Shown here in pieces: positions 2,157 to 6,364 of a stretch of DNA of 63,056 nt (within the stretch, counting starts at the first letter, position 1; every line of letters starts with the position of its first letter). Below the pieces are notes generated by a model that was not told the origin of the DNA, did not search any database, and was given only the letters and a program-made list of their open reading frames with translations. Both the position numbers and the translations under genes were made by a program. This DNA comes from Deltaproteobacteria bacterium (GTDB lineage Bacteria; Desulfobacterota; BSN033; UBA1163), in the NCBI GenBank assembly GCA_020059605.1, contig JAGVBT010000040.1, positions 1 through 63,056 of the forward strand. The letters are read 5' to 3'.

Positions 2157-2402
2157 ATGCCGATTTATGAGTATCAATGTCATCAATGTGGAACGATTTC
2201 AGAATTTTTGGTCGGGATAGCAACCCCGAATAGTTCTCTGTCATGCAAACAGTGTGGGAGTTCCCAATTGGAAAAAATGATCTCTGTGTCTCATTCTTTA
2301 AGAGGCGATAAAAGAGCGCCCGGTCAGACCTGTTGCGGTAAAGAGGAACGTTGCTCCACCCCACCGTGTTCTACTGGTGGCACCTGCAGGGGGGAGGATT
2401 GA
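2157..2402 (+). CDS. FmdB-family zinc-ribbon protein
   Basis: 81 residues starting MPIYEYQCHQCG, the hallmark of the FmdB/CxxC_CxxC_SSSS regulatory zinc-ribbon family. Zinc would be held by CHQC near residue 8 and CKQC near residue 31. The tail is cysteine-rich (CCGKEERC, PPCSTGGTC), as in several members. The ribosome-binding site AAGGAGG sits 7 nt before the ATG. The family's role is unclear; FmdB was named from a formamidase cluster and is often called a putative regulator. It closes the first gene group before a 163-nt spacer. Confidence 0.85.
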   Translation: MPIYEYQCHQCGTISEFLVGIATPNSSLSCKQCGSSQLEKMISVSHSLRGDKRAPGQTCCGKEERCSTPPCSTGGTCRGED

Positions 2403-2565: not shown

Positions 2566-3273
2566 ATGGCAAACGCAAAAGATGGATGTGTGCAGCCGGC
2601 AAAGGGCCCAATGATGGCGGGGGAATCCAAAACATCTCAAACATCACCAATTCAAAAGGAGGAAGCAAAGATGAGTGCTCAAGTTGGCAAACCAGCGCCT
2701 GATTTTGAGGCAAGCGCCTATGTGGACGGGGGTTTTAAGAATATTAAACTATCAGATTATAAAGGGAAATGGGTCGTGCTCTGCTTTTACCCTGGTGATT
2801 TCACTTTTGTTTGACCGACTGAATTGTCGGCAGTTGCCGTCAAATATCAAGAATTCAAGTCTCTCGGCGTAGAATTTTTATCATTCAGCACAGATAGCCG
2901 CTTCACCCACAAGATCTGGCAGGAGGAGGAGCTCTCCAAAATGGTCCCAGGAGGAGTGCCATTCCCTATGCTGTCAGATGCAGGAGGCCGCATCGGTAGT
3001 GTCTATGGCGTCTACGATGAAGATGCAGGAGTTGACATCAGGGGACGGTTTCTGATCGATCCGGATGGGGTCATTCAGGCGATGGAGACGGTTACTCCAC
3101 CGGTCGGCCGGAATGTTTCCGAGCTGATCCGGCAGGTCAAGGCTTTTCAGCATACCCGAACTACAGGCGAGGTGATGCCTTCCGGATGGCAACCTGGGAA
3201 ACCAACCCTAAAACCCGGTCCCGATTTGGTGGGGAAGGTTTGGAAGGTCTGGAAACCGGAGATGGCCTATTAA
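2566..3273 (+). CDS. peroxiredoxin (AhpC/TSA family), probable selenoprotein with UGA-coded Sec at the peroxidatic position
   Basis: Two open stretches in one frame are separated only by TGA at 2812-2814. Across the join the product reads ...[19 protein letters not shown]..., so UGA replaces the peroxidatic Cys of the universal FTFVCPTE motif. The downstream part has all other family landmarks: [20 protein letters not shown], a [12 protein letters not shown] strand and a [18 protein letters not shown] tail. A bacterial SECIS-like hairpin follows (2824-2843). The position that holds the resolving Cys in GEVCPxGW homologues is Met here, and no Cys follows the UGA, so this would be a 1-Sec enzyme reducing peroxides with an external thiol. 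ATG 2566 has a strong AAAGGAGGT; ATG 2671 also has a GGAGG-type site and would place Sec at residue 48, the usual position. Both starts are possible. A terminated product would lack the active site. Confidence 0.88.
2824..2843 (+). promoter_or_regulatory. bacterial SECIS-like hairpin of the peroxiredoxin gene
   Basis: Within the coding sequence just after the UGA, TTG-T-CGGC / GCCG-T-CAA forms a stem with one U-U mismatch and an AGTT apical loop containing a G. The loop starts 17 nt after the UGA, inside the distance range known for SelB-dependent bacterial SECIS elements. Confidence 0.7.
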
Positions 3274-5061: not shown

Positions 5062-5077
5062 AAGGAGGTAGAGGAAG

Positions 5078-5602
5078 ATGGCCTTCACGGAGGGGAAAGT
5101 CTGGAGTCCATATTTGGCCGGAGCTCTGAGCGGGGTTCTCTCCATTCTATCCGTTTGGGTTGCCGGAAAGTACTTCGGCGCATCGACCACCTTTGTCCGT
5201 TCCGCCGGAATGATTCAGAAAATCATCGGTTCTGAACGGATAGCTAACATGTCTTATTTCATTAAAGAGATTCCTGAAATCGACTGGCAGTGGATGTTTG
5301 TGGTTGGCATTCTCATCGGTTCCCTGATTGCCTCGATCACTTCTAACACTTTCCTCTGGAAGGGCGTGCCCGATATGTGGGAAAAACGGTTTGGGCCAGG
5401 TAAACTCAAACGGGGCATTGTCGCTTTTCTAGGCGGAGTGATCGCCATGTTTGGCGCCCGTCTGGCAGATGGGTGACCGAGCGGCCATGGTTTGAGCGGT
5501 TCGCTCCAGTTAGCAGTGAGTGGTTACATCGCCCTGATATGCTTTTTTATCGGCGGAATGTTCATGGCCCGACTCCTCTATGGAGGAGGTGATCGAAGAT
5601 GA
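5078..5602 (+). CDS. YeeE/YedE (sulf_transp) half-transporter, probable selenoprotein with Sec at the conserved Cys
   Basis: The frame is open from ATG 5078 (AAAGGAGG 14 nt upstream) to TGA at 5600-5602, interrupted only by TGA at 5474-5476. The product across the join reads GARLADG-U-PSGHGLSGSLQLAVSG. Family members carry G-C-x-S-G-H-G here, so UGA replaces the conserved pore Cys at residue 133. The 41 residues after UGA complete the domain with a last membrane helix. The total of 174 residues equals the length of the second half encoded next. The real stop overlaps the next start (ATGA), showing that ribosomes are expected to reach it. A perfect hairpin at 5494-5506 fits a bacterial SECIS. 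Family members move thiosulfate or related sulfur species through cysteine relay; one line co-occurs with selenium metabolism. Use of Sec here is inferred from sequence. Confidence 0.88.
5494..5506 (+). promoter_or_regulatory. bacterial SECIS-like hairpin of the YeeE/YedE gene
   Basis: GAGCG-GTT-CGCTC is a perfect 5-bp stem whose G-containing loop starts 22 nt after the in-frame UGA. It lies inside sequence coding the conserved GLSGSLQ segment. Size and distance match SelB-binding bacterial SECIS hairpins. Confidence 0.7.
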
Positions 5603-6123
5603 TGATACTTTACGGGCTTATCACAGGAATCCTCTTCGGCTTTTTATTACAGAAAGCGAGGGTAATACGCTATGATAAACAACTCGGCGCCCTCCGGCTC
5701 ATCGATATGACTATTGTCAAGTTCATGCTTTCCACCGTTCTGGTGGCGATGGTAGGAACTTACCTGCTTAAAGATTTAGGCTTGGTTAAGCTCTCAATAA
5801 AGTCAACCATCTTAGGGAGTGTCATTCTGGGCGGTTTGATCTTTGGAATGGGCTGGGGACTCTTGGGTTACTGTCCGGGAACATCGGCCGGAGCACTCGG
5901 GGAGGGACGGTTTGATGCGATCTGGGGAATTTTTGGAATGCTCTTAGGAGCGGCCCTTTATGCAGAGGCCTATCCGGGTATGAAAAAAACGGTTTTGACA
6001 TGGGGTGACCTCGGGAAAATTACCTTTCCTCAGATATTCGGTTTGAATCACTGGATCATCATCGCCATCGTTGTGACTGGAGGGTTATTCCTCTTTCGCT
6101 GGTTTGAGAAAAAAAATATATAG
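5599..6123 (+). CDS. YeeE/YedE family transporter, second half
   Basis: 174-residue membrane protein starting at the ATG that overlaps the stop of the Sec-containing half (ATGATGA). It has four to five hydrophobic helices and the family motif GLLGYCPGTSAGALGEG, which keeps its Cys. Split YeeE/YedE pairs are thought to assemble into one channel equivalent to full-length TsuA-like thiosulfate transporters. Here one half would offer selenocysteine and the other cysteine. A ferredoxin gene follows 64 nt downstream. Confidence 0.9.
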   Translation: MMILYGLITGILFGFLLQKARVIRYDKQLGALRLIDMTIVKFMLSTVLVAMVGTYLLKDLGLVKLSIKSTILGSVILGGLIFGMGWGLLGYCPGTSAGALGEGRFDAIWGIFGMLLGAALYAEAYPGMKKTVLTWGDLGKITFPQIFGLNHWIIIAIVVTGGLFLFRWFEKKNI

Positions 6124-6187: not shown

Positions 6188-6364
6188 ATGGCAGTGATCA
6201 TTGATCTGGAGAAATGCACAGGATGCGGAACATGTAAAGAGGGTTGCCCGGTAGAGGCCATTAAGATTGAGAATGAGAAGGCCGTGGTTGATGCAGAGAC
6301 TTGCGTCGATTGCGGGACCTGCATTGATGAATGTCCTGAAAAAGCCATCAGCGAAGGGACATGA
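6188..6364 (+). CDS. 2[4Fe-4S] ferredoxin
   Basis: 58-residue protein with two classical cluster motifs: Cys10/13/16/20 and Cys39/42/45/49, the last in each followed by Pro. It is a cytosolic low-potential electron carrier typical of anaerobes. The ribosome-binding site AGGAGG lies 6 nt before the ATG. In related gene orders a YeeE/YedE pair, a ferredoxin and a metallo-beta-lactamase-fold protein often sit together; here only a scrap of the last seems to follow. Confidence 0.93.
   Translation: MAVIIDLEKCTGCGTCKEGCPVEAIKIENEKAVVDAETCVDCGTCIDECPEKAISEGT

What the first reader, a model, noticed from the sequence alone, without database searches (positions are those of the whole stretch)
5078..5602. 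UGA-coded selenocysteine at the conserved pore Cys of a YeeE/YedE half-transporter
A single in-frame TGA (5474-5476) stands exactly where the family has Cys in G-C-x-S-G-H-G. The frame continues for 41 family-typical residues, the final stop overlaps the next start (ATGA), and a perfect G-loop hairpin lies 18-30 nt after the UGA. These four signs together argue against a mutation. I cannot recall Sec at this site being described for this transporter family and could not check. A Sec relay in a sulfur/selenium channel would be mechanistically new.
Basis: partly seen in the sequence, partly recalled or inferred. Interest (0 to 1): 0.88.

Follow-up and report, generated by a model that had tools for sequence, protein, structure and literature searches.

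The report
Selenocysteine-containing sulfur transporter half, already catalogued
A membrane protein of the YeeE/YedE sulfur-transporter family very probably carries selenium (selenocysteine, read from a UGA codon) where its relatives carry a key cysteine; this is real, but such selenium forms of the family are already listed in the literature.

Summary
An in-frame TGA (5474-5476) interrupts a YeeE/YedE half-transporter gene (5078-5602), 41 family-typical codons follow, and the final stop overlaps the start of a second half-gene (5599-6123). Of 23 relatives, 15 have TGA and 8 have Cys at this exact site, and none has another codon. Among 69 distinct copies, a GG-loop hairpin with all four inner pairs is kept in 44 of 46 TGA copies but only 2 of 23 Cys copies, with compensatory changes. 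The window's genome carries selA, selB and a selD that itself has an internal TGA. tRNA-Sec was not found in this incomplete assembly, but 15 of 17 genomes of the family have it. The residue aligns with Cys293, the first relay cysteine of the thiosulfate transporter YeeE of Spirochaeta thermophila. The partner half keeps its relay residue as Cys in 69 of 69 loci. The claim of novelty fails: reviews of 2022 and 2026 list YeeE/YedE as a selenoprotein family, the latter with the motif GUxSG. What remains open is function: my searches found no study of what Sec does in this transporter.

The parts
5078..5602 (+). YeeE/YedE half-transporter gene (C-terminal-half type), selenoprotein, 174 residues with Sec at 133
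   Evidence: Pfam PF04143 profile positions 175-309, 75.4 bits read through; relatives with TGA or Cys
5474..5476 (+). UGA read as selenocysteine, in the motif ADG-U-PSGHG; aligns with Cys293 of S. thermophila YeeE
5492..5509 (+). SECIS-like hairpin; inner 4-bp stem and GGUUC loop at 5494-5506
   Evidence: all four inner pairs in 44 of 46 TGA copies against 2 of 23 Cys copies; not supported by folding the window's RNA alone
5063..5068 (+). AGGAGG, likely ribosome-binding site of the selenoprotein gene
   Evidence: sequence
5582..5589 (+). GGAGGAGG, likely ribosome-binding site of the partner gene, inside the end of the selenoprotein gene
   Evidence: sequence
5599..6123 (+). Partner YeeE/YedE half (N-terminal-half type), 174 aa, start overlaps the stop by ATGA
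   Evidence: PF04143 profile positions 18-152, 54.3 bits; residues 2-136 align with 1-142 of 6leo
5872..5874 (+). Only cysteine of the partner (Cys92, GYCPGT); aligns with Cys91 of S. thermophila YeeE
   Evidence: the motif follows with a Cys codon in 69 of 69 loci

Best explanation
The two overlapping genes encode a two-subunit YeeE/YedE membrane transporter for reactive sulfur (sulfane sulfur or thiosulfate, possibly selenium analogues). In the first subunit UGA at codon 133 is decoded as selenocysteine by SelB with the help of the hairpin just downstream (strongly supported by sequence, not shown by experiment). By alignment, Sec133 takes the place of the first relay cysteine of YeeE, and Cys92 of the partner takes the place of the second (supported by alignment). 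The proposed working is inferred: the selenolate at the outer end of the pore takes up a sulfur group, passes it to Cys92 of the partner in the middle of the membrane, and from there it goes to a thiol acceptor in the cytoplasm; the third relay cysteine of YeeE (Cys22) is absent here. Sec would speed the exchange step.
For: Same-site TGA/Cys exchange: 15 TGA and 8 Cys of 23 relatives; 46 and 23 of 69 distinct copies in a sample that is biased to TGA. Hairpin: four inner pairs in 44 of 46 TGA against 2 of 23 Cys copies; the Gly codon in the loop is GGT in 44 of 46 against 2 of 23; the fourth pair varies as G-C, C-G and G-U and the outer pair as C-G and U-A. Against synonymous recoding, TGA copies fold better (mean z -1.91) than Cys copies (-0.74), p 9e-5. 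Purifying selection after the TGA, for example 9 synonymous and 1 non-synonymous codon differences in 39 against L022. selA, selB and a selD with an internal TGA in the genome. tRNA-Sec in 15 of 17 genomes of the family. Sec/Cys state changes at least 10 times on a quick tree, 4 forced by well-supported branches. Relay positions from 6leo and PMC11073785 (passages). A two-subunit relative, YedE1E2, imports zero-valent sulfur and needs one conserved Cys in each subunit (PMC10812762, passages).
Against: tRNA-Sec was not found in the window's own assembly by covariance model (150 of 617 candidates scored), ARAGORN on the candidate loci, two patterns or a relative's DNA. In the window itself the 45-nt RNA prefers a competing fold and is not more stable than shuffles. 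Two of 46 TGA copies lack one of the four inner pairs, and 2 of 23 Cys copies keep all four. Three of 33 TGA-bearing genomes gave no selB match at E <= 1e-60, though all three have selA; selB does not separate Sec from Cys genomes (30 of 33 against 32 of 34). Substrate, direction and complex formation were not tested; the AlphaFold2 model was too poor to use (mean pLDDT 60).
Confidence: 0.87

Rival explanations
1. Nonsense mutation: the TGA is a recent mutation or sequencing error and the gene is broken.
For: Single interruption in a draft assembly of 167 contigs; tRNA-Sec not found in it.
Against: The same TGA in 15 of 23 relatives from several phyla, purifying selection after it and a hairpin conserved with it.
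Confidence: 0.02
2. UGA is read as a standard amino acid (reassigned code or suppressor, for example Trp or Cys).
For: tRNA-Sec is missing from the assembly.
Against: TGA also ends this gene and the gene in many relatives; selA, selB and selD present; the hairpin follows TGA and not Cys. Where the codon was read without a filter, the non-TGA copies have Cys in 16 of 16 (8, 8), never Trp.
Confidence: 0.03
3. The UGA is a regulated stop: a short (132 aa) and a full-length product are both made, and the ratio reports on selenium supply and may set translation of the overlapping partner.
For: UGA read-through by SelB competes with termination in general (recalled); the partner start overlaps the end of the reading frame.
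Against: The short product lacks the relay residue and the last 41 residues; nothing tested here points to a function for it; the partner has its own likely ribosome-binding site.
Confidence: 0.08
4. The Sec form is a selenium transporter (import or export of reduced selenium) and not a sulfur transporter.
For: YedE (TIGR04112) is a predicted selenium transporter by gene neighbourhood (PMC5322559, passages).
Against: The Sec half has no TIGR04112 match at E <= 0.01 and the partner only a weak one (31.7 bits, cut-off 200). Of the 8 window proteins scanned none is named as a selenium-metabolism enzyme; the peroxiredoxin PrxU is a selenoprotein but not one. Cys copies have the same partner gene (23 of 23).
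Confidence: 0.15

Closest known systems
Sec-containing YeeE/YedE family (PF04143, motif GUxSG, WP_012471001.1), listed in PMC13188914 and PMC9312934
   Same: Same Pfam family and the same motif: G-U-P-S-G here
   Different: I could not compare with WP_012471001.1 itself; the passages I saw do not describe half-genes, the SECIS or the relay position
YeeE/TsuA thiosulfate transporter of Spirochaeta thermophila (PDB 6leo, 8k1r)
   Same: Both halves align with it; Sec133 with Cys293, partner Cys92 with Cys91
   Different: Two genes instead of one; Sec for the first Cys; third Cys (22) absent; scores far below the TsuA cut-offs. A YeeD/TusA gene was looked for only among the 8 proteins scanned, none of which is listed as one
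YedE1E2 zero-valent sulfur transporter of Cupriavidus pinatubonensis (PMC10812762)
   Same: Two short YeeE/YedE subunits from adjacent genes, one conserved Cys in each
   Different: Cys form; its sequence was not at hand, so orthology was not tested
YedE putative selenium transporter (TIGR04112) and YedE/FdhT (NF033796)
   Same: Same superfamily, weak matches; PMC5322559 reports that YedE is split into two neighbouring genes in archaea, so half-genes are known
   Different: Models of 337 and 387 positions (full length); cut-offs 200 and 350 not met; PMC5322559 describes a conserved Cys, not Sec, in YedE

Membership tests
Bacterial selenoprotein | In-frame TGA aligned with Cys or Sec in homologues | tested here: met
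   15 TGA and 8 Cys of 23
Bacterial selenoprotein | Hairpin with GG in the apical loop shortly after the UGA (bacterial SECIS; definition recalled) | tested here: met
   44 of 46 TGA copies against 2 of 23 Cys copies; but the window's RNA alone gives z 0.00
Bacterial selenoprotein | SelA, SelB, SelD in the genome | tested here: met
Bacterial selenoprotein | tRNA-Sec in the genome | tested here: inconclusive
   not found in the own assembly of 93.7% completeness; found in 15 of 17 genomes of the family
Bacterial selenoprotein | Selenium shown in the protein | not testable with these tools
   needs 75Se labelling or mass spectrometry
YeeE/YedE (PF04143 Sulf_transp) | Pfam gathering score | tested here: met
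   75.4 bits against cut-off 27; partner 54.3
TsuA thiosulfate transporter (NF052577, NF041049) | Curated score cut-off and three relay cysteines | tested here: not met
   46.1 and 28.5 bits against 400 and 645 (each half alone against a full-length model); the Cys22 position is Ile23 of the partner
YedE putative selenium transporter (TIGR04112) | Curated score cut-off | tested here: not met
   no match for the Sec half at E <= 0.01, 31.7 bits for the partner, cut-off 200 (each half alone against a full-length model)
YedE1E2 zero-valent sulfur transporter | Two half-length subunits, each with one essential Cys, that import zero-valent sulfur | tested here: inconclusive
   anatomy fits; orthology and transport not tested

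The most novel reading that the evidence does not exclude
Selenocysteine at the outer relay position makes this a chalcogen-relay channel in which a selenolate does the first capture step while the second relay residue must stay cysteine; the asymmetry (Sec in one half only, repeatedly exchanged with Cys, and not seen in the partner in 69 of 69 loci) would mark the entrance step as the rate- or specificity-determining one.
Probability: 0.35. Interest if true: 0.6.

Novelty: new member of a known kind. Interest (0 to 1): 0.35.

Why it matters
The Sec form of the family is listed in reviews, but my searches found no test of it. Placing Sec at the first relay residue of a transporter family with solved structures makes a direct test possible: whether selenium speeds or alters chalcogen transfer through a membrane. 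The repeated Sec/Cys exchange gives natural pairs for comparison. Annotation that treats this TGA as a stop truncates the gene.

Tried and rejected
Covariance search for tRNA-Sec in the own genome gave a match at the cut-off (47 bits) that is in fact tRNA-Ser (ARAGORN), so I do not count it. A recalled tRNA-Sec pattern, a pattern from relatives' tRNA-Sec with up to 3 mismatches and 3 kb around a relative's gene found nothing in the own genome. The tool notes that the empty answer shows nothing by itself.

Copies of the family with an internal TAA looked odd; reading them showed the TAA to be the normal end of the gene, in Cys paralogues.

The AlphaFold2 model of the single half was poor and was not used for a fold search. 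Rfam at a loose threshold gave one weak chance-level match (snoRNA sR1, E 0.54) in the first 12 kb of the window.

I looked for other selenoproteins in the window among TGA read-through frames. Seven frames were scanned against NCBIfam: five had no match at E <= 1e-10; in the other two (HpnM and exopolyphosphatase) the match begins after the TGA, so it gives no support for read-through. My loose hairpin scan finds no such hairpin at the known selenoprotein PrxU, so it is not a reliable detector.

Rows dropped before the counts: duplicates (L045-L048, L110; the window itself enters once, as L049), L056 (TGA copy cut at a contig end), and L057 and L063 (motif not found, so their residue is unknown). 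The scripts accept only TGA, TGC or TGT at the site; each of the other loci of that set gave a row, so no copy was lost by this filter. The 69 copies are not an unbiased sample of TGA against Cys: 10 regions were fetched as TGA copies and the genome search hands out the best matches first. The 23 loci were not chosen by codon.

Full report
What is there. The gene at 5078-5602 starts with ATG after an AGGAGG, has a single in-frame TGA at 5474-5476 (codon 133), runs on for 41 codons and ends with TGA at 5600-5602, which overlaps the ATG (5599) of the next gene, 5599-6123. Both are halves of the YeeE/YedE (Sulf_transp, PF04143) family: the first matches profile positions 175-309 (75.4 bits read through, 44.7 bits for the part before the TGA), the second positions 18-152 (54.3 bits). 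The gene order is therefore C-terminal-type half first, N-terminal-type half second.

Sec or mutation. A search of the genome collection with the read-through protein gave 23 relatives. At the site 15 of 23 have TGA and 8 of 23 TGC or TGT; none has another codon (no codon filter). By record titles the TGA copies come from Syntrophaceae and other deltaproteobacterial groups, Nitrospirota (L028, L031) and Synergistales (L037). In the window's family 13 of 17 genomes have a copy, 9 of them with TGA at the site. In an even draw of 297 genomes of the phylum 67 have a copy at E <= 1e-40. In 33 of these 67 I read a TGA at the site; of the other 34 I read a Cys codon in 8 and for 26 saw only the tool's count of internal stops. 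After removing duplicates and cut copies, 69 distinct copies remain, the window's included: 46 TGA and 23 Cys (biased toward TGA, see Tried and rejected).

Hairpin. Numbered from the T of the TGA, pairs 24-30, 23-31, 22-32 and 21-33 close a 5-nt loop in 30 TGA copies; in 16 others, most of which encode Leu-Ala instead of Ser-Leu there, the stem is shifted by one base and closes a 6-nt loop. All four inner pairs form in 44 of 46 TGA copies and in 2 of 23 Cys copies (L034, L067). A looser count, any GG-loop stem of 4 bp or more, gives 44 of 46 against 3 of 23. The fourth pair is G-C 17, C-G 6, G-U 5 and mismatch 2 in the first type; pair 19-36 occurs as C-G, U-A and U-G, with 4 of 30 and 2 of 16 mismatches. 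The loop begins with GG in 46 of 46 TGA copies, and also in 22 of 23 Cys copies because glycine is conserved there; but the glycine codon is GGT in 44 of 46 against 2 of 23. With synonymous recoding as control, TGA copies have mean z -1.91 and Cys copies -0.74 (Mann-Whitney p 9e-5). One Cys copy, L067, keeps a perfect 8-bp version, which looks like a remnant of a recent Sec-to-Cys change. Against this stands the window's own RNA: in a 45-nt fold the minimum-energy structure is a different one and z is 0.00. I trust the comparative evidence more, since SelB binds a local hairpin (recalled), but a single-sequence prediction would not have made the case.

Evolution. On a quick tree of the 69 proteins with the site masked, Sec and Cys need at least 10 changes; well-supported branches alone force 4 (27 of 66 inner branches are weak). 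The window's genome also has a second, Cys-type pair (C129, L059) in a separate branch. Purifying selection continues after the TGA: against seven relatives the 39 codons after it show 8-21 synonymous and 1-5 non-synonymous differences.

Machinery. The window's genome (4.38 Mb, 167 contigs, 93.7% complete) has selB (371.7 bits), selA (622.4 bits) and selD (391.7 bits). selD has an internal TGA early in the frame, in the context KKAG-TGA-AAKIGPEDL, where SelD carries its active-site Cys or Sec (recalled). tRNA-Sec was not found. With the same model it was found in 15 of 17 genomes of the family, at 76-83 bits, and ARAGORN names it tRNA-SeC in 6 of 6 loci given to it, of 12 fetched. The own genome and G004 lack it; both are draft assemblies, and only part of the candidates was scored (139-150 of about 617 for the own genome), so I take this as a gap, without proof. 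Of the 67 genomes with the gene, 62 have selB at E <= 1e-60: 30 of 33 with a TGA copy and 32 of 34 without. The three TGA genomes without a selB match all have selA; of the two others without selB one has selA. So selB does not separate the two classes; the Cys form is used even where Sec could be made.

Position in the transporter. By phmmer alignment Sec133 falls on Cys293 and the partner's only cysteine, Cys92, on Cys91 of S. thermophila YeeE (6leo; E 1.8e-4 and 4.8e-6); the position of Cys22 is Ile23. [quoted passage not shown] The partner motif G-Y/F-C-P-G/A-T follows in 69 of 69 loci, each time with a Cys codon; a TGA there would have been reported. PMC10812762 (passages) reports that the two-subunit YedE1E2 imports zero-valent sulfur, needs both subunits, and loses activity when the conserved Cys of either subunit is changed to Ser. 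Together these make a two-subunit sulfur importer with Sec at its outer relay residue the most likely reading; substrate and direction are inferred.

Known or new. PMC13188914 (2026; [quoted passage not shown] PMC9312934 (2022; passages) lists the family too. The former cites two earlier papers for it (PMC2398784, PMC5029168); a term search of their main texts found neither YeeE nor YedE, so the primary source may be in supplements that I could not read. Split YedE genes are reported in archaea (PMC5322559, passages), so half-genes are not new either. A term search of the deep-Sep paper (PMC12013277) found no mention. Searches for a functional study of the Sec form (open-licence PubMed Central papers only) found none. 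The feature is therefore a new member of a known selenoprotein family; what this work adds is the hairpin evidence, the repeated Sec/Cys exchange, the two-gene anatomy of the Sec form and the relay position.

Noticed in passing
window 2566-3273 (+), TGA at 2812-2814: A second selenoprotein gene lies 1.8 kb upstream: read through, it matches the peroxiredoxin family PrxU (NF040737, 402.9 bits, cut-off 270). A PrxU-like match also lies near the transporter in 7 of the 69 loci within the short flanks held. My loose scan found no GG-loop hairpin after its TGA.
   Followed up: partly
L067 (G147, Cys copy): A Cys copy with a perfect 8-bp GG-loop hairpin after the TGC codon, apparently a remnant SECIS after a recent Sec-to-Cys change.
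   Followed up: partly
window 5078-5602 against L050-L052: The window's Sec copy is closest (90%) to a copy from another genus of the family, while three members of its own genus carry a distinct Sec clade; transfer or old paralogy within the family.
   Followed up: no
L018 (G000:C150:37026-37952), TGA at locus nt 1531: selD of the window's genome has an internal TGA near its start, so SelD itself appears to be a selenoprotein.
   Followed up: partly
window 6188-6364 (+): A 58-residue ferredoxin-like protein with eight cysteines follows the transporter pair; a similar gene follows in L024.
   Followed up: no
window 2157-2402 (+): FmdB-type zinc-ribbon protein (named from sequence, recalled), Cys form; a similar gene lies just downstream of the transporter in L028 and L073.
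   Followed up: no
L001 (G000:C25:2133-2214): The Rfam tRNA-Sec model scores a tRNA-Ser exactly at its gathering cut-off (47 bits), a false positive for selC surveys.
   Followed up: yes
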